This document shows positions 1 to 8,454 of a stretch of DNA of 64,000 bases, piece by piece. The stretch comes from Acidobacteriota bacterium. Lineage in GTDB: Bacteria > Acidobacteriota > Vicinamibacteria > Vicinamibacterales > CAVVIG01. Numbering within the stretch: position 1 is the first letter of the stretch; each line of letters begins with the position of its first letter. The notes beneath the pieces were generated by a model. The model had not been told where the DNA came from and searched no databases. It saw only the letters and a list, made by a program, of their open reading frames with translations. A program made the translations under genes and the position numbers. Location of the stretch: NCBI GenBank assembly GCA_003222395.1, contig QHWB01000062.1, positions 1-64,000 of the forward strand, given 5' to 3'.

Positions 1-573
1 TTTGGGATGGTCGATGGTCGCGAGCGCGAAGCAGCCTCGACACGGTTCGTTCCGACACGTCGACGCCCAATTTGGCTAATTCGCCATGAATGCGCGGTGC
101 GCCCCATAACGGGTTGTCCGACGCCATCTTGCCGACCAGCGTACGGATCTCGCCATCGATTGGTGCCCGACCCCACCGCGTCTGCGTCGAGCGGCGAGTC
201 CATCGGCGGCGCAGCCAGTCGTGATGCCATCGCATCACTGTCTCCGGCTGGACGATCAGCAATGCGGTGCGCCATTGCCGCCACGTGCTGGCCAACCCGA
301 TCCAGAACAGCCGGTCGCGGGTCCGGAGGCGCGGACGCTTCGTCGTCCGTTTTAACGCCTGAGCTGCTGGCGCAGCGCGATGTTCTCGAGGATCAATTCG
401 TGATGGCCGCGGCAGGCCAACGCGAGCGCGCGGACACTCAACAAGATCGTCTCCAGCACGCTCCAATCGTGTCGTGCGCCGCGTGCAATATCAACCGGCA
501 CCGAGGCGGATGGCGTTTTGGCGAACGACAGCGTGTTCTCACGTTCGAGGCGCGCCCGCTCGCGGTTCGTCAA
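1..573 (-). pseudogene. IS481-like transposase relic, frameshifted and cut by window edge
   Basis: Reading from the right, the first frame ends in the typical N-terminal phrase ENIALRQQLRR and stops near 352. The sense then continues in the -1 frame with a helix-turn-helix and linker region (RDRLFWIGLASTWRQWRTAL, then VMRWHHDWLRRRW) and an integrase-like segment (IDGEIRTLVGKMASDNPLWG). The catalytic DDE part lies beyond the window edge. No slippery heptamer is visible at the shift, so decay is more likely than programmed frameshifting. The family assignment rests on the order of these motifs. Confidence 0.75.
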
Positions 574-842
574 TCGGATCGCTGGGCGTCTGCTCGGCGC
601 GCCGGCTCACGCGCCTGTTATGCCAGAATTCCGGTCTCAGTATAAGTCAGACGCGGTAACCAAATACGATTTCAAATGCCAGGGTCGTTCATTCAATCGA
701 ATCGGCACAGTGTGATCGATTTGCCAGCCAGATTGGGCCGCACAGAATTTATGCAGACCACAGCGACGAGCGTTTCCATTTCGCACGTGGATCGGTACCA
801 GCGTCGTCGCGCTCGGTCGCGCCTTTTCGTACGTCCCGTACA

Positions 843-1382
843 TCACCACCGGCGGCTAAGTAGCTGCGAGAGAATCGCTCGTAGCGGTCCCGTCGTCGGC
901 ATGTCCGTCGGAAAGATTTGTCCCCGGATCTCACCGTCACCGTTCCGCTCGGTGTGCACATCCAAGTACGTTCCGGCCAACACTAACGACTTGAGGGCAT
1001 CCTCGGCCGTTCGGATCCCAAGATCGGCACTCAGCTTGACATCCGCGCGTGTCAGTGTCCCCTTCGAATTGACATCACCCGACTGACTCGCGGGCCTCAG
1101 ATCGAACACAATCGGACCAACAAGGCCGGGGCCTCCGATGTGGATATGGGCTCCGGTGAGCCGAGTGGCCAAATCAAAGAGCATGATGTCGTAGGACACT
1201 TCACTCTTGCCCAAATCGATCGTGAACTGTGCGGCACCCACGGCGCCGGTTAATACGCTTCGCGTCGGGACGTCGGCCCCATTCAACAACGCCACCGTGG
1301 TCACCGTTTGTGCGAGTGCCGGCGTCGAGACCACGCCGATCAGAGCCAACCCAGTGAGCAACGAACGAAAGGATTGCTGCAT
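843..1382 (-). CDS. secreted CHRD-domain protein
   Basis: A 179-residue protein with a clear signal peptide (hydrophobic stretch ending ALA-Q about residue 25). It is followed by one CHRD domain, recognisable from GAHIHIGGPG, GPIVFDL, GTLTRADV and the C-terminal TYLDVHTERNGDGEIRGQI. CHRD domains occur in chordin and in bacterial extracellular proteins; their bacterial role is unknown. The start is the ATG preceded by AAAGGAGAAG. A longer reading would add 54 residues before the signal peptide and is unlikely. No operon partner is visible. Confidence 0.85.
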   Translation of the reverse strand: MQQSFRSLLTGLALIGVVSTPALAQTVTTVALLNGADVPTRSVLTGAVGAAQFTIDLGKSEVSYDIMLFDLATRLTGAHIHIGGPGLVGPIVFDLRPASQSGDVNSKGTLTRADVKLSADLGIRTAEDALKSLVLAGTYLDVHTERNGDGEIRGQIFPTDMPTTGPLRAILSQLLSRRW

Positions 1383-2340
1383 GCGTGCTTCTCCTTTGTT
1401 GAACAATGAACTGACGCGTGATGAACGACGGGACGCGTAGCGCGGCTCGGGGTCGTCGGCGGGCTCGCCAATAGGTTTCGCACGGTCAGCGGCAGCCGTG
1501 GTGACCTGGCGAGATGAGTGCAAAAGGCGGGGGCCTGCGCACATGCGTCGTGGGCGCGCCGGCGCGCTGCGATGCTCGCGGCGATCACCTCTTCTGGCTC
1601 GTAAAGGATAGATGCTTGGTCGCGCGCGACTGGATCAGCCATGCCCCCTGCTCCCGTAAACGGCTTTGGTGAGAGCAGGCAGGGCCGGCAGCATCGCCGG
1701 AGATGGAGGCGCTCAGGAAAGCGCCAAAGCATGCGCCTTTTCGGTGCCATTGTCACGAACAATGATGCGTTAAGCTTGAATGTCCTGAGTGACGACGATC
1801 GACGACCGTGGCGCGACGGTGCATTCTTCGCAATGGTTGATGGTCCGACCTCTGTAATTGTCATGGTCATGACGGCGGTGCGCAACGTGCGACGAGCCGA
1901 GACTCTCCGAAATTCGGCGTGGCATAGCGGATTTTTGCTCCTTTTGATGATCGCCGGTGCCTAGTCAGCGCAGCGGGTGAGTTCGGTCCATGTTCTTTTG
2001 ATGTATCGACGAACCGCTGAACCTGATTCGCCGATGGGAGTGGTGCCGAAAGACCGGTCTCGTCTGACCGCGGCTGCTGCCGAAGGTCGTGGCGGCGGTT
2101 CCAGTCGCGTCGGGGCCGCGCTACCAGATGTTCATTTGTGTTCCTCGACCCGTACTGCGCAAACCGAGGGTGGCGAAGCTCATGAGGGGTCCGCGCGAGT
2201 GCGACGGACGCATCGATGGTGCTATTTCGGTCGGACGATCACCAGATTCCCAACCCATACCCTCCTGACGAGAAGTCGATGTACCCATCGTCGACGCGCG
2301 CTCGAGAACAGATTCTTCGCGGCAGGAGTACTTAAATTAA
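1383..2340. other. no supported gene (about 960 bp)
   Basis: Several open frames exist on both strands, but none shows a recognisable domain, signal peptide or convincing ribosome site with matching composition. A 50-codon minus-strand frame beginning near 1922 behind AAAAGGAG is the only one with a plausible start. It has no recognisable product and is not called. Confidence 0.5.
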
Positions 2341-2398
2341 CGGTTTTCATCGCTTTTCGCGGGCTGCACGCCCAGGGTTAACCAGGGTCGAAAATCTC
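2341..2398 (+). repeat. left copy of hairpin direct repeat flanking IS110
   Basis: Shares CG-TTTTCAT, TTTCGCGGGC, TGCA, GCCCAG, AACCAG and CGAAA with the copy on the other side of the element, in the same order and orientation (roughly 75-80% identity by eye). The core GGGC-TGCAC-GCCC can form a small stem-loop. Confidence 0.6.
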
Positions 2399-2404
2399 TC
2401 CCGA

Positions 2405-3688
2405 TCATGCTGGACTGCTCGATGGAGCCGGGAGCTGCTCGACACGATAGCCGAGACTTCGCAGTTCGCGGATCATCTTGCGCGCTCGCACCTTCTTCGC
2501 CTCTGCGCTGACCGCTGGTCCGCGTTCCTCGTACCGAATGCCTTGGTGAAGAATCTTCCAAATGAGACGACAGAGCCGGTGGGCGATGGCCCCGATGGCT
2601 TGAGCGTGCCCGAGGCGCGGGACGAGCCGTCGATAGACGATCGCGAAGATCGTGCCCTTGGCCTTCGCCGCCGCGTTTGCAGCTTGATTGACGACGCGCC
2701 GCATCTGGCGGTTGCCCTTGGGACAGCGGTGGCTGTAGTTCACTCCGGCACTCTCCTCACTGCCCGGGCACGCGCCCATCCACGACGCAAGGTGTTTGGG
2801 TGAGGGAAACGTGGCGGCAGTGGCACCGACTTCCGCGATGAGCTGCTGCGCGGAATCAGCGCCCAGCCCAGGGACTTCTGCGAGACGCTGCACCGCGTCG
2901 TGATGCTGCGCGAGGAGCTGCGCCATCTGGTGATCGAGCTGGGCGAGGTGATCCTCGATCAATCGCAATTCTTCGAGCGTCAGCTTCACGAGCCGGCGAT
3001 ACACGGGGTTCAGGGTCGTACACGCTCTGAAGGCGTCGCACAATTGAGCCGCCGTCGCGCGTAGGCGCTGGTCTGCCAGGGACGCCAGTGTCGCAGGATC
3101 CGACTCGCCATCGGCAAGGGCTTGGAGCATGCGTCGTGCGCTGGTGCCCAGCAAATCGGAGACAAGACTCGAGAGCTTGATGTGTGCTTCTTCGAGCAGC
3201 GATTCCAATCGATTGTGGAGCTGGACGCGGTTGCGCGTGACCTGATACTTGCGTCGCATCACGGTCCGCCAGAGCCGCTGTTCGGCGTCGGGCACAAAGC
3301 TCAAGGTCAGCTCTTGCGCCGCCAGGCGCTTCACCAATCGTTCGGCATCCGGAAAGTCCCGTTTGCGCCCGCCGGCGCCACGATTGGATTGCGCTTGCGC
3401 AAGGTGAAGGGTCCCGGACACGGGGCTCGCTCCTGCGCGCGTCCGGCGCACCGGCCTCCAGTACTGCTCCAATGCCTCCCACACGGGTCGCCAGTACTGC
3501 GCGGTCGATTCCATCACGACTTCGTCGACCTCACGCTCAACCAGGCAGTCGGCGAACGCGCACAATTGGGCGGGGCTGGTCCCGACCTTCAGCCGTTCAA
3601 AGTGGTAGTCACCTTCGACCTCGACGTCGGCCACCACAACGGCCAACATCTTCTTGTGCACGTCAATCCCCGCGATCTGGTACGGCAT
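2405..3688 (-). CDS. IS110-family transposase (DEDD recombinase)
   Basis: A 427-residue intact protein. The N-terminus (AGIDVHKKMLAVVVAD) carries the first Asp of the RuvC-like DEDD catalytic domain, and VMESTAQYWRPVWEAL carries the Glu. A central coiled region follows. The C-terminal transposase_20 domain contains the family signature around LAEVPGLGADSAQQLIAEVG and the catalytic-serine region FPSPKHLASWMGACPGSEES. IS110 recombinases are guided by a bridge RNA made from the element's own noncoding end. The segment around residues 77-115 contains a repeated QYWRPV and an Arg/Gly-rich insert, which is a little unusual. Confidence 0.9.
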   Translation of the reverse strand: MPYQIAGIDVHKKMLAVVVADVEVEGDYHFERLKVGTSPAQLCAFADCLVEREVDEVVMESTAQYWRPVWEALEQYWRPVRRTRAGASPVSGTLHLAQAQSNRGAGGRKRDFPDAERLVKRLAAQELTLSFVPDAEQRLWRTVMRRKYQVTRNRVQLHNRLESLLEEAHIKLSSLVSDLLGTSARRMLQALADGESDPATLASLADQRLRATAAQLCDAFRACTTLNPVYRRLVKLTLEELRLIEDHLAQLDHQMAQLLAQHHDAVQRLAEVPGLGADSAQQLIAEVGATAATFPSPKHLASWMGACPGSEESAGVNYSHRCPKGNRQMRRVVNQAANAAAKAKGTIFAIVYRRLVPRLGHAQAIGAIAHRLCRLIWKILHQGIRYEERGPAVSAEAKKVRARKMIRELRSLGYRVEQLPAPSSSPA

Positions 3689-3891
3689 CGGTCTCTCCTC
3701 GTGGGAGCGGAGAGCGTGCCTTCTCGCATCACTCAGGGTCGCGAGCTATCGCCGGCTCTTGGGCGAGCGCGACGACGCTCAATTATTCGGTCAATCGCGC
3801 ACGCTCCGGATCAAACAGTTGCTCGGCCTCGATTGCTCCATGGCTAATCTCGATCTCGCCGCTCCCAGCACCGACATTCTGCCCAATCCCA
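3689..3891 (-). ncRNA. candidate IS110 bridge RNA region
   Basis: This is the noncoding stretch directly upstream of the intact IS110 transposase, inside the repeat-bounded element. IS110-group elements are known to transcribe a structured RNA of roughly 150-250 nt from this end, pairing with target and donor DNA through internal loops. Only position and length support the call. The fold and the two guide loops were not computed. Confidence 0.3.
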
Positions 3892-3949
3892 CGATTTTCA
3901 TTCCCTTTCGCGGGCCTGCAGGCCCAGCCGCAACCAGTTGCGAAACTCG
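3892..3949 (+). repeat. right copy of hairpin direct repeat flanking IS110
   Basis: Second copy of the IS110-flanking segment. Its core is a perfect palindrome, GGGCCTGCAGGCCC. The copies may be a REP-like insertion target or element-end sequence. Confidence 0.6.
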
Positions 3950-4168
3950 TCCCGTACGGCCCGCCAACTTATCCTTCAGTGAAGCAAGGAGTTCCCGTTG
4001 CGAGGCGGGAGCCTGCTTCCAAGCAGGCCGGTGTCCGCGGGAAGGTTCGCTTGCAACGAACTTGCAAGATTTCCGAGCTTCCTCGAGACTCCGCAAGCCT
4101 CGGAGCGTCGCGTTGAGGTATCCTTCTGGCGCGCGAGCATGGCGTTCGCGTACCGGTACTGATCGTTT
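3950..4168. other. hairpin-rich noncoding stretch
   Basis: Contains consecutive perfect stems: GCCTGCTT/AAGCAGGC around 4011-4028, CTTGCAA/TTGCAAG near 4050-4068, and TCCGAG/CTCGGA near 4074-4107. No protein with recognisable features is encoded. It could be the end of an older mobile element or a structured RNA. The density of stems is real; a function is not established. Confidence 0.4.
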
Positions 4169-4724
4169 ATGCGCGCGGCTCGTATCTCGTGTTTCGTCGC
4201 GATCGCGTTCATCGTCGCCGCCTCCACGATCCTGCGCGCCGCCGAAAGCCTGCGCGTGACGCCGATCGTACGGGACGATCAGGTGCTCGTCACCATCGAG
4301 CTCGCCGAGGTCTACACGGACGCGGTCCGCGACGCGATTGCGAGCGGGCTCACGACCACGTTCACCTACGAGCTGGAGCTGCGCACCGCCGCGCCGCGCA
4401 TATGGGTAATCCCGGCGTGGATGGACCGCACGATCGTGACAAGCGGTCGTCAGCGCGAGCGATCACTACGACAACCTCACGCGGCGCCACACGCTCACGC
4501 GGACGATCGACGGCCGCGTCGATTCGGTGACCGTCACGAGCGACGAAGAAGTCGTGAAACCGTGGCTCACGACGTGGAACCGCCTGCCGCTGTGCGATAC
4601 GTCGAAGCTGGATCCGATCCGCGACTACTACGTACGCGCCACCGCGCGCACGCGGTCGCCCGGATCGCTCTTCGGCTGGGCCAAGAGCATCACAGCGCAG
4701 ACGAAGTTTACGTTCGTGCCCTGA
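4169..4724 (+). pseudogene. DUF4390-type secreted protein, frameshifted
   Basis: Begins with a signal peptide (MRAARISCFVAIAFIVAAST) and a typical DUF4390 opening (LRVTPIVRDDQVLVTIELAE, then SGLTTTFTYELELRT). The frame breaks near 4440-4465. The rest of the domain continues in another frame (SDHYDNLTRRHTLTRTIDGR, VVKPWLTTWNRLPL, YYVRATA) to a natural end KFTFVP. DUF4390 proteins are small exported proteins of unknown function. One frameshift is enough to explain the damage, so it could also be a sequencing error. Confidence 0.8.
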
Positions 4725-4742
4725 CGCGCAACCGCATGACAA

Positions 4743-4829
4743 CGTAGGGGCGGCTTCCTCCGGCCCCTTCGACAGGCTCACGGCGTCCGAGTGTAGTCGA
4801 GGGGAGCCGACCCAAGGTCGGCCCCTACG
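4743..4829. repeat. palindromic intergenic repeat (REP-like)
   Basis: Outer arms CGTAGGGGC and GCCCCTACG are perfect inverted repeats about 70 bp apart. An inner hairpin GCCGACC-CAA-GGTCGGC lies at 4806-4822. The middle contains CCCTTCGACAGGCTCACGG, a phrase typical of dispersed bacterial intergenic repeats. It sits just downstream of the DUF4390 relic and could act as a terminator or a REP-type nonautonomous element. Confidence 0.6.
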
Positions 4830-4860
4830 CGGTAAACGGAATCTTCGTGAGCCGGACAGT

Positions 4861-5585
4861 CTACTTGACGCTGATTTTGACGAGGCCGGTCGTACAACAG
4901 CAGCCGAATCCGCCGCCGCCGTCGCCCGAGTAGTCGTTGGCGGTGACGTGCAGCACGTAGTCGTCCGGCTCGCTGAACGTCACGGTAGTGGTGGCCTTGC
5001 CTCTGAACCCGCCATGGTGGCGTTGCCGTCGGCGAGCTTCTGCACTTCAGGATTGGGCTTGTCGAACGTCACGGTACCGGGGCCGCGGTACTTCCAGCAC
5101 CTGAGCGTCACCGCGGGGACGCGGCTTGCTCATGGGCGCGCTCGTACCGCTCGTGTACTTCATGTCGTCGGCGGCCCGCAGATCGAGCTGAAACGGCGCC
5201 GACACCGACGCGTTTGCGTCGGCGCAAGCGTCATGTTCGCCAGCGGCCCCTGGATGGCGTGGCCGTTCGGGTCGAAGCGGATCGCCGGCGGCGTGTTGCC
5301 GACGGCGATCTCGCTGAAGGGGCTCATCACGTAATCCGGATGCAGGCGGAACGGAATAGTCGTCGTCCGTCCGTTCGCAAAATGGGTCCAGGTGCCGTTG
5401 TCCTCTGGCGAGAAGTCCTTCGGCACGTGAACCATGAACATGCCCCACTGACGTCCGGTCAGATCAGAAAGTGCGTTGGCTGTCCAATGTCGGGGTCACC
5501 CGGCGCGATCCGGTTGTTCGGCCCGATCGGGATATCGAGCTCGAATTGTCCCACGAGTCGATCGACTGCTGTGATCAGCCGATTC
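4861..5585 (-). pseudogene. secreted protein of unknown family, truncated and frameshifted
   Basis: Read across frames the protein runs: RLVGQFELDIPIGPNNRIAP ... GDPDIGQPTHFL / RQWGMFMVHVPKDFSPEDNG ... PFRLHPDYVMSPFSE / VSAPFQLDLRAADDMKYTSG / GKATTTVTFSEPDDYVLHVT ... FGCCCTTGLVKISVK, stop. At least three frame changes are needed. The 5' end is lost where an IS481-like element begins. The C-terminal part resembles an Ig-like beta-sandwich ending (TVTFSEPDDYVLHVTANDYS). No function is known to me. Confidence 0.7.
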
Positions 5586-5611
5586 TTCGTTTCGTGAGAT
5601 AGACTCCCGTC

Positions 5612-6659
5612 GTGATCGACATGTCGGCTCTCCAGATGCGGTTCGCAGTCCTGATCGGCTGGTTGGATCGTCAGGAGCGCGAGGCACTCGCGTACCTGAT
5701 TGAAGAGAATCGCGTCCTGCGAGCGCAGCTGGGTGGGCGACGCCTGCGTCTGACAGATGACGACCGACGACGCCTCGCCGTCCGGGCGTGTCGGTTGGGA
5801 CGGCAGGCCTTACGCCAAGCTGCGACGATCGTGACGCCGGATACCTTGCTGCGGTGGCACCGGCAACTCGTTGCTTGTAAATGGACCCACGCGCGACGAT
5901 CCCAGCCTCGGGGAGTGCTGGCCGAGATCCGGCATTTGGTCGTGCGGATGGCCGAGGACAATCCGACCTGGGGCTACACGCGGATTCAAGGTGCGCTGAA
6001 GAACGTGGGGCATCGCGTTGGCCGCTCGACGATTGCGCGCATCCTGAAAGCGCACGGCCTGGCGCCTGTCCCGGAGCGGACGACGTCGTGGCAGACGTTT
6101 CTCCGCGCTCACAGGGATGTGATCGCCGCGGCGGATTTCTTCACGACGGAGGTGTGGACCTAGCGCGGCTTGGTGACGGTCTACACGGTATTTGTCATTC
6201 ACCTCGCGTCTCGTCGCGTGCAGATTATGGGGTCGACGGCGCATCCCGACGAGGCATTCATGCGCCAGGTCGGCCGCACGCTGACGATGGCTGACGCCGA
6301 GACCTGTCGCGTCCTGATTTGCGATCGGGATGCGAAATGGAGCAGGCCGGTGCGCGACGTCTTGCAGGAAGCGGGGATCCGCATCGTGCAAACGCCGTAT
6401 CGAGCACCGAACGCAAATGCGTACGCCGAGCGATTCGTACAATCGATCAAAGAAGAATGCGTCGATCGGATCATTCCCCTTCGGTGAGCGACATTTCCGA
6501 CGCTCCGTGCACGAGTTTGTTGCGCATTACCATCTTGAACGCAATCATCAAGGGCTCGGAAACGCACTGATCGATCGCGTCGCGGCCGACACGGTTGGAG
6601 CGATTCGCCGCCGACCGCGCCTGGGCGGATTGCTGAATTACTACGAGCGCGCCGCATGA
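5612..6659 (+). pseudogene. IS481-like transposase with internal stop and frameshift
   Basis: Starts at a GTG with helix-turn-helix and linker segments (TPDTLLRWHRQLVACKW, EDNPTWGYTRIQGALKNVGH) leading into the rve/DDE core. A TAG stop interrupts the frame at 6161-6163, just after the first catalytic Asp (AAADFFTTEVWT). The same frame resumes with VYTVFVIHLASRRVQI, the second Asp (LICDRDAKW) and the Glu region (YAERFVQSIKEEC). A frame change near 6480 is needed to reach RNHQGLG and the C-terminus GGLLNYYERAA. It cannot make a full transposase. It abuts a truncated gene on each side. Confidence 0.85.
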
Positions 6660-7809: not shown

Positions 7810-8454
7810 TCATGCCTTCGCCGCGAGCATCGCCTCGACGGCGTCGATCTCGTCCGCGACGATCGTGTGAGCCATGCGCGGGTAGATGCGTTCGTCAACG
7901 CTGGCGCCCATGCGCCGGAAGACCGCCACGGATTCGCGCACGCGATCGAGTGGTATGTGCGGGTCGATGTCGCTGCACCCGATGAAGATCGGAGTGGCGT
8001 CGAACGCGCCGACGTAGTTCCGTGGTGTCCCCGGCGGCCCGATCAGCCCTCCGCTGAATGCCGCCACCGCCGCGTACCGTTGCGCATGCCGGGCCACGAA
8101 CTCGAGGGCAAGGCACGCGCCCTGCGAGAATCCCATCAGCACCACGCGCTCCGACGGGACACTCTGTTGCAGTTTCTCGAGCAAGGATTCGATCATATGA
8201 AGCGCGGAGTCCAGCCACGGCGCGTTCTGGTCGAAGGGCGCGAGAAACGAATATGGGTACCAGGTGCTGCCCGCTGCCTGCGGCGCCAGGTACGCGATGT
8301 CCGTCGCGCTGAACTGAGCGGTCAGACCGAGGATGTCTTCCGCCGAGGCGCCGCGCCCATGCAAGAGGATCGCGACGAGTCGCGCGTCCTTCTGAGATGG
8401 TCCGGATCGGAGTACCGGCTGATCTCTATGTGGATCCTGAAGATTCGTGGCCAT
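7810..8454 (-). CDS. mhqD: carboxylesterase/phospholipase (MhqD-like)
   Basis: A 214-residue alpha/beta hydrolase of the Abhydrolase_2 class. An oxyanion-region LLHGRGAS lies near residues 30-37, the nucleophile elbow GFSQGA has Ser110, the acid is in CSDIDPH (Asp162 or 164), and His196 is in RMAHTIV, giving a complete catalytic triad. No signal peptide, so cytoplasmic. It starts 15 bp after the stop of a ring-cleaving dioxygenase gene on the same strand, the arrangement of mhqO and mhqD in Bacillus quinone-resistance operons. The substrate is probably an ester or ring-cleavage product, but this is inferred from the pairing. Confidence 0.75.
   Translation of the reverse strand: MATNLQDPHRDQPVLRSGPSQKDARLVAILLHGRGASAEDILGLTAQFSATDIAYLAPQAAGSTWYPYSFLAPFDQNAPWLDSALHMIESLLEKLQQSVPSERVVLMGFSQGACLALEFVARHAQRYAAVAAFSGGLIGPPGTPRNYVGAFDATPIFIGCSDIDPHIPLDRVRESVAVFRRMGASVDERIYPRMAHTIVADEIDAVEAMLAAKA

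What the first reader, a model, noticed from the sequence alone, without database searches (positions are those of the whole stretch)
2341..3949. Intact IS110 with possible bridge RNA and hairpin direct repeats
The transposase is undamaged, about 200 bp of noncoding leader lies upstream as in bridge-RNA-encoding IS110 elements, and both ends carry related ~57-bp hairpin segments in the same orientation. The repeats could be the recognised target or a REP-like landing pad, giving a natural target specificity to test.
Basis: partly seen in the sequence, partly recalled or inferred. Interest (0 to 1): 0.6.

Follow-up and report, generated by a model that had tools for sequence, protein, structure and literature searches.

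The report
Bridge-RNA jumping gene with mirrored guides
This is an intact bacterial jumping gene whose upstream RNA carries guide letters that match the DNA on both sides of where it landed; the guides sit in the opposite order to the best-studied example, and the puzzling repeat at its right-hand side looks like the leftover tip of an older copy into whose edge it inserted.

Summary
The IS110 call is right, and comparison supports a real bridge RNA. Nineteen leaders, the window's among them (3865-3703, minus strand), fold into a closing stem, a target loop and a donor loop. Scanned against the flanks, one strand of the target loop equals each copy's left flank and the other is complementary to the right flank. 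Left guide: perfect in 16 of 24 own flanks against 9 of 552 swapped pairs. Right guide: at least 4 of 5 bases paired in 9 of 15 own against 3 of 210 swapped. The core dinucleotide (TG, AG or GG) agrees at both ends in 15 of 15 copies.
The guide order (right 5', left 3') is the reverse of IS621 and matches IS1111, although the RNA lies upstream of the gene as in IS110. Two bases after the left guide equal the element's first bases in 18 of 21 copies, a mirror image of IS621's handshake guide.
The hairpins do not look like REPs. The left one is the element's own left end. The right one is best read as a 41-bp fossil left end of an older copy, starting exactly at the core. One perfect, unoccupied target stands elsewhere in the genome. 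Nothing was tested at the bench.

The parts
2383..3934 (-). IS110-type element, LE to RE including the right-hand core TG (1552 bp)
   Evidence: borders from comparison of copies and from guide/core positions
2405..3688 (-). transposase/recombinase, 427 aa, DEDD RuvC domain plus Tnp domain
3703..3865 (-). predicted bridge RNA: closing stem, target-binding loop, donor-binding loop
   Evidence: A1 alignment and fold, model R1 157.7 bits (the window is one of the model's rows)
3841..3847 (-). right target guide TTAGCCA, 5' side of the target loop; pairs with TGGTTAA (core plus right flank), 6 Watson-Crick + 1 G-T of 7
3816..3822 (-). left target guide GCAACTG, 3' side of the target loop; identical to the left flank plus core (7 of 7)
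3734..3740 (-). left donor guide GACCCTG, 3' side of the donor loop; identical to the RE end
3893..3934 (-). LE tip: first bases after the core, GGGCCTGCAGGCCC hairpin, GCGAAA and GAAAATC (the 'left repeat')
   Evidence: GGGCC/GGCCC stem in 20 of 25 recognised left ends, another stem in 4, none in L025
2390..2396 (-). RE subterminal inverted repeat GATTTTC, partner GAAAATC at 3899-3893
   Evidence: 7 of 7 in 10 of 16 copies, at least 6 in 16 of 16; changed together in L021 and L029; 96 of 240 swapped pairs also 7 of 7
3935..3936 (-). left copy of the core dinucleotide TG
2383..2384 (-). right copy of the core dinucleotide TG
2342..2382 (-). presumed fossil LE tip of an older copy (the 'right repeat'), used as the right half of the target
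   Evidence: best match to LE of L020 (score 51, 34 matches in 39 columns with one gap), starts at the first base after the core
3937..3966 (-). left target half: part of a short segment seen at three other places of the genome
   Evidence: 91% over query 22-54, ending one base past the core

Best explanation
The element is a bridge-RNA-guided IS110 recombinase element. Its 163-nt upstream RNA has a target loop and a donor loop. [quoted passage not shown] both include the core TG. In the donor loop the 3' strand (LDG, GACCCTG) matches the right end of the element. The recombinase joins the circular RE-TG-LE donor to an LT-TG-RT target without a target duplication. The guide order is the mirror image of IS621, so by inference the complex sits the other way round on the element and the opposite strand is exchanged first. 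This copy inserted at the LT|LE border of an older copy of the same family, whose 41-bp LE tip remains as the right 'repeat'; the rest of the older copy has been lost. Shown computationally: RNA fold, guide-flank matches, guide order, element ends, and the likeness of the right repeat to a left end. Inferred: expression, RNP formation, circular donor, strand order, the older insertion, and that the element is active.
For: Scans of every leader column against every flank position: identity to the left flank peaks at leader columns 82-90 (1.54 excess against at most 0.90 in 60 permutations; 3.08 once flanks were set in core register with the guide's help); complementarity to the right flank peaks at columns 56-65 (1.94 against at most 1.30 in 200 permutations, 12 copies). 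Fixed tests: LTG (5 nt + core) perfect in 16 of 24 own left flanks against 9 of 552 swapped; RTG at least 4 of 5 Watson-Crick in 9 of 15 own against 3 of 210 swapped; neither sum reached in 20000 permutations. LDG equals RE in 7 of 7 bases in 13 of 16 copies and 6 of 7 in 3, with two variants changed in both places. Core equal at both ends in 15 of 15 copies (read). Fold: 7 of 40 pairs with changes on both sides, 0 of 500 shuffles. Handshake: the two bases after LTG equal the first two of LE in 18 of 21, or 17 of 20 without the near-duplicate L053. The same conventions on IS621 give LTG 5' and RTG 3'. Fossil LE.
Against: No transcript, RNP or circle was tested. Four of 24 copies (L025, L059, L085, L099) do not match their left flank (4 or 5 of 7). 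Right-guide matches are weak (at most 2 Watson-Crick of 5) in 4 of 15 (L024, L025, L034, L101). A right donor guide was not found, and the donor-loop handshake is inconclusive (11 of 30 bases). 33 of 40 pairs of the fold lack a two-sided change, and the number of further pair types is not exceptional (48 of 500 shuffles). The window's own fold alone is not exceptional (z -1.27). Copies are related, so they are not independent events; most come from draft MAG contigs. The window itself is one of the 3 of 21 copies without the handshake match. No body or right end of the supposed older copy was found in the parts searched (window 1-6500 for transposase; whole window for RE).
Confidence: 0.9

Rival explanations
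1. Both hairpins are REP-like genomic repeats and the IS inserted into or between REPs, as reported for some IS110 elements.
For: Two similar hairpin segments in the same orientation flank the gene; IS110 elements that target REPs are known (recalled). The genome searches did not find even the window's right-hand repeat, so diverged repeats elsewhere could have been missed.
Against: No further close copy of the 81-bp LE segment in the 7.7-Mb genome; the pattern count is like its reversed control, 5 against 4; relatives carry the hairpin at their left end with unrelated outer flanks, and 18 other right flanks lack it.
Confidence: 0.05
2. The right-hand hairpin is the trace of a tandem dimer or dimeric circle of this element that lost one unit, rather than of an independent insertion beside an older copy.
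For: The fossil starts exactly at the core after RE; head-to-tail copies of a distant relative exist in Alicyclobacillus dauci.
Against: The fossil scores higher against the LE of L020 (51) than against the window's own LE (42), which suggests a different, older copy; decay could also explain this.
Confidence: 0.25
3. The noncoding leader is only a 5' UTR or regulatory RNA and the guide matches reflect shared ancestry of flanks.
For: Some copies share guide and flank (window, L020 and L038 all have GCAACTG; L023 and L053 are near-duplicates); copies are related.
Against: The 21 copies with at least 6 of 7 matches carry 18 different left guides, and swapped pairs match rarely (9 of 552; 3 of 210).
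Confidence: 0.03

Closest known systems
IS621 bridge-RNA system, IS110 family (PMC11208160: passages and one section seen; PMC11208158: passages seen)
   Same: Upstream bridge RNA with target loop first and donor loop second; two target guides that include the core; shared core dinucleotide; DEDD plus Ser recombinase; two-base handshake extension of the 3'-side target guide.
   Different: LTG and RTG swap sides of the target loop, and LDG is on the 3' side of the donor loop; transposase 427 against 326 aa (24% identity); core TG instead of CT; LE hairpin; 7-bp subterminal inverted repeats where IS110-group members were reported to have 2-3 bp.
ISEc21, IS110 family seekRNA (PMC11187229: abstract and sections on features, seekRNA, ISEc21, targets, discussion read)
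   Same: Upstream noncoding region that carries matches to both target strands.
   Different: In ISEc21 the match to the top strand is 3' of the match to the bottom strand; here it is 5'.
IS1111 group (ISEc11, ISPa11, ISKpn4; PMC11187229)
   Same: Guide order (top-strand match 5'); subterminal inverted repeats, here at the short limit.
   Different: Noncoding region upstream instead of downstream; transposase 427 aa instead of 330-350; distant in the tree from two NCR-downstream elements (L173, L174).
IS110 elements with transposases of about 400 aa: ISArsp3 (L161), Alicyclobacillus dauci IS110 (L175-L177), Streptomyces (L165)
   Same: Upstream noncoding region; hairpin and GAAAAT motif at LE and ATTTTC at RE, by eye. 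Left guide in the 3' part of the putative target loop in Alicyclobacillus, and probably in ISArsp3.
   Different: 32-35% transposase identity; unrelated guides and targets; right guide not confirmed in Alicyclobacillus and only a by-eye candidate in ISArsp3; no guide resolved in Streptomyces.

Membership tests
IS110 family (bridge-RNA recombinases) | DEDD RuvC domain and Tnp domain with catalytic serine | tested here: met
   Pfam and NCBIfam hits; D9, E60, D111, D114, S313 invariant in a 10-row alignment that includes IS621
IS110 family (bridge-RNA recombinases) | Noncoding-end RNA with a target loop and a donor loop | tested here: met
   by comparative fold only; no RNA was observed
IS110 family (bridge-RNA recombinases) | Guides complementary to target flanks and donor end | tested here: met
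   target guides; left donor guide. Right donor guide not found
IS110 family (bridge-RNA recombinases) | No target duplication beyond a shared core dinucleotide | tested here: met
   core equal at both ends in 15 of 15 copies with both ends readable, including AG (L027, L102) and GG (L030) (read)
IS110 family (bridge-RNA recombinases) | Circular intermediate and RNA made from the RE-LE junction | not testable with these tools
   needs reads or wet-lab work
IS110 group as opposed to IS1111 group | Long noncoding region upstream of the transposase | tested here: met
IS621/ISEc21 type of bridge RNA | Bottom-strand guide (LTG) 5' and top-strand guide (RTG) 3' in the target loop | tested here: not met
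   order is reversed; the IS621 control gives the published order. Not filed under this subtype
IS1111 group | Long noncoding region downstream of the transposase | tested here: not met
IS1111 group | Top-strand guide 5' of bottom-strand guide | tested here: met
   definition from PMC11187229
IS1111 group | Subterminal inverted repeats of 7-17 bp | tested here: inconclusive
   7 bp, perfect in 10 of 16 copies, at least 6 in 16 of 16, two co-changing variants: at the lower limit
REP-targeting IS110 | Target is a repeated palindromic element of the host genome | tested here: inconclusive
   no close hairpin copies, but those searches would miss diverged ones; the left target half is a short segment with three other partial copies, whose symmetry was not tested

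The most novel reading that the evidence does not exclude
A whole branch of IS110 elements with transposases of about 400 aa runs the bridge-RNA reaction in mirror image: guides of both loops change sides, the handshake bases read the element's left end instead of its right end, and the first strand cut is the opposite one. Guide order is then not tied to whether the RNA lies upstream or downstream of the gene, and this branch stands between IS110 and IS1111, with IS1111-like inverted repeats.
Probability: 0.5. Interest if true: 0.65.

Novelty: new variant of a known kind. Interest (0 to 1): 0.55.

Why it matters
Guide order was reported as a difference between the IS110 and IS1111 groups, with one IS110 member tested (PMC11187229). 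Here an element with IS110-type location has IS1111-type order, and the handshake bases move with it, which makes the geometry of the reaction testable. The family also gives 16 copies whose left guide matches its own flank perfectly (14 different guides), core changes (TG, AG, GG), and one perfect, unoccupied target in the host genome as a ready test. The presumed fossil left end suggests that such elements can hit the edges of their own relatives.

Tried and rejected
REP search: no close genomic family; both searches also missed the window's right-hand repeat, so they are of limited reach. Rfam: one weak hit (pRNA, E 1.2) on the coding region, none on the leader. PDB by sequence: none at E 0.001. 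Single-sequence folding of the window RNA: z -1.27, not exceptional; L024 gave z -2.70. The first right-flank scan was faulty: one short flank (L002) cut all flanks to 19 nt and L027 was anchored wrongly; its best value (0.76 against at most 0.75 in permutations) lay in that cut stretch. It was replaced. In one search the left scan also shows a trivial signal (1.33) where the flank stretch overlaps the start of the leader. Right donor guide and donor-loop handshake: not established. Wider protein searches brought no copy that I could show to be new: four of their loci were found again in the set, and L072/L073 lie on a contig as long as that of L038; searches scored at most 4 and 9 candidates per genome, so they are no census. 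Caballeronia copies: the three printed side by side had the same flanks, and the guides stayed unclear. Two NCR-downstream elements (L173, L174) were used only in the tree; their guides were not resolved, so the IS1111 order rests on the paper. That the two bases after LTG equal LE in IS621 too was taken as chance, since the published handshake bases lie on the other guide. The target segment as the C-terminus of a gene (..FRNWL..) was considered; no long frame was seen to lead into it.

Rows dropped: L053 (near-duplicate of L023), though it is; L025 (no left core recognised); L002 (flank ends with the contig); L102 from the handshake count (one base of flank left). Left out of all guide statistics: L026/L103 (run of N; same flanks as L034), L091 (same as L100), L032/L104 (cut leader), L033, L035, L047 (no recognisable LE), L098, L106, L107, L108 (divergent; only inspected). 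The 25 copies had to show the ATGAAA motif near the leader, so counts of the LE hairpin are among copies with a recognisable LE.

Full report
What is there. The window carries a 427-aa IS110 transposase on the minus strand, 3688-2405, with the two Pfam domains of the family, the NCBIfam IS110 model and the DEDD and serine positions of IS621 (the catalytic residues of IS621 are from passages of PMC11208158). 203 bp of noncoding DNA (3689-3891) lie upstream of it. The genome holds two other close copies, one that ends with its contig at the right end (L002, 71%) and one without its 5' part (L003, 86%), besides more distant IS110 relatives at 32-35%. The protein scan of genome contigs gave 51 loci, many distant or partial, the closer ones mostly labelled Acidobacteria. 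Searches returned contigs already in the set as far as I compared them; one search added further copies.

Element ends. Copies in different surroundings share a left end with a GGGCC-GGCCC hairpin followed by GCGAAA and ATGAAAATC, and a right end GATTTTCGACCCTG, after which they diverge. Among 25 copies with a recognisable left end, 20 have a GGGCC/GGCCC stem; L021 has a 6-bp stem with both arms different; L038, L002 and L100 have other stems of 4-5 bp; L025 has none. GATTTTC and GAAAATC are subterminal inverted repeats: 7 of 7 in 10 of 16 copies, at least 6 in 16 of 16, with joint changes in L021 and L029; 96 of 240 swapped pairs also match fully, because many copies are alike. In window coordinates the element runs from 3934 to 2383 with the right core; the left core is 3936-3935.

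The RNA. Nineteen leaders align (A1). RNAalifold gives a closing stem, an arm with an internal loop (target loop) and an arm with a second internal loop (donor loop), 40 pairs. 7 pairs have changes on both sides against 1.6 on average in shuffles, 0 of 500 reaching 7; the number of further pair types is not exceptional (48 of 500); sliding the partners lowers pairing from 97.8% to at most 47.8%. The structure was derived from these sequences, so the sliding control leans in its favour. The model R1 finds the window at 157.7 bits and L002 in the same genome, both rows of the model, and has matches in 20 of 24 genomes that hold loci of this family, most of which also gave rows to the model.

The guides. 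I scanned each leader column against each flank position, with copies permuted as control. The left flank gave one strong same-sense signal in the leader (1.54 against at most 0.90 in 60 permutations; 3.08 in core register, where the register was set with the guide), apart from a trivial one where flank and leader overlap. The right flank gave one strong complementary signal (1.94 against at most 1.30 in 200 permutations, 12 copies). In the other sense the best values were 0.77 on the left (permutations up to 0.91) and 1.01 on the right (95% of permutations below 1.03). With guides at fixed places, 5 nt plus core of the left guide are found perfectly in 16 of 24 own left flanks against 9 of 552 swapped pairs, and the right guide has at least 4 of 5 Watson-Crick pairs in 9 of 15 own against 3 of 210 swapped pairs; neither sum was reached in 20000 permutations. 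Of the other 8 on the left, L065, L021, L030 and L031 match in 6 of 7, and L025, L059, L085 and L099 in 4 or 5. L059, L085 and L099 have only pieces of the transposase; L025 has a full-length one. Right matches are weak in L024, L025, L034 and L101; L101 would match if shifted by one base (by eye). The window's own guides are GCAACTG (7 of 7 on the left) and TTAGCCA (6 Watson-Crick and 1 G-T of 7 on the right). The core agrees at both ends in 15 of 15 copies that can be judged, with AG in L027 and L102 and GG in L030 (read). The donor guide GACCCTG equals the right end in 7 of 7 bases in 13 of 16 copies and 6 of 7 in three; L025 (GAGCCTG) and L102 (GACCCAG) changed in guide and end together. 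A right donor guide was not found.

Order and mirror image. In the RNA the right target guide comes first and the left target guide second. Read with the same conventions, two IS621 copies from E. coli give left first, right second (by eye; L160 also by script), as published (PMC11208160, passages). PMC11187229 (abstract and sections read) reports the IS621-like order for ISEc21, the one IS110 member tested there, and the reverse order for IS1111 elements, whose RNA mostly lies downstream of the gene. So this element joins IS110 location with IS1111 order. In IS621 two bases after the 3'-side target guide pair with the donor after strand exchange (handshake guides, PMC11208158, passages). Here the 3'-side guide is the left one, and its two following bases equal the first two bases of the left end in 18 of 21 copies (17 of 20 without L053), with TC, TT, GC and GA all represented; the window, L065 and L020 are the three misses. 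In one search this signal was 0.70 against at most 0.65 in 200 permutations. This is what a mirrored complex predicts. The donor-loop counterpart is not supported (11 of 30 bases).

How far this reaches. An Alicyclobacillus dauci plasmid has several copies of a relative at 32% identity. Its left end also has a hairpin and GATGAAAATG. A leader stretch with GATTAG, which I place by eye on the 3' side of a target loop (no fold was made), equals the left flank in two copies and differs by one base in two more; one copy lacks that end. The left border was not fixed independently, and the right flanks showed no convincing right guide. ISArsp3 has a 10-base left match in the 3' part of its leader and, by eye, a right-guide candidate 5' of it. 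This suggests, without proving it, that the order belongs to the branch with long transposases. A tree puts the window with Acidobacteriota copies and far from two NCR-downstream elements; 5 of its 12 inner branches are open.

The repeats. The window's right flank from 2382 on aligns to the left end of L020 with 34 matches in 39 columns and one gap, score 51; the window's own left end gives 42, the best of 18 other right flanks 21, and 1000 shuffles at most 27. It begins at the first base after the core. I read this as the left tip of an older copy: the present copy landed on the border between the target segment and that tip. No other piece of the older copy was found (transposase in window 1-6500; right end in the whole window). 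The left flank matches a segment at three other places of the genome: C40, where the query was taken from an unbroken stretch, C10 (86%, similarity runs past the core, though the core bases differ), and C100 (97%, but similarity stops one base past the core, as in the window; no hairpin follows it in the stretch printed). The sequence GCAACTGGYTAAYC occurs once in the 7.7-Mb genome at up to 1 mismatch, as a perfect, unoccupied GCAACTGGCTAATC at C34:412494-412507; the reversed pattern gave 7 hits.

Known or new. A bridge-RNA IS110 is a known kind, and natural retargeting among relatives is known (PMC11187229, section; PMC11208160, passages). My paper searches (openly licensed PMC papers only, no preprints; listings, of which I opened three papers) showed me no report of the reversed order with an upstream RNA, but a figure in PMC11208160 that shows three further IS110-group RNAs could not be seen. 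I rate it a new variant of a known kind.

Noticed in passing
L025 and L099 leaders: The left target guide reads GACCCTG, the same as the family's usual right end, and does not match the left flank; such a guide would aim at the right end of sibling copies.
   Followed up: partly
L176 (NZ_CP104065.1 56816-59573) and 96980-98197: Two head-to-tail copies of an IS110 element; the second lacks the hairpin part of its left end at the junction. A further copy at 96980 lacks most of the leader with the putative bridge RNA.
   Followed up: partly
G000:C40:2671-2755, C10:6148-6205, C100:5972-6003: Short segment repeated in the genome (GGCGGGCCATCTGGGACGA..TTTCGCAACT) that could encode ..WRAIWDDFRNWLVATA* but has no long frame leading into it where looked at; origin unknown.
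   Followed up: partly
window 5612-6570: Broken IS3-like transposase in two frames (HTH_21 above its cut-off; rve_3 below its cut-off), another insertion sequence about 1.7 kb from the element.
   Followed up: no
window 843-1544 (-) and 7810-8454 (-): A CHRD-domain protein and a phospholipase/carboxylesterase-family protein near the element.
   Followed up: no
L028 right end and left flank: Right end GACGCTG differs from the family's GACCCTG and equals this copy's own left target; its donor guide still reads GACCCTG.
   Followed up: no
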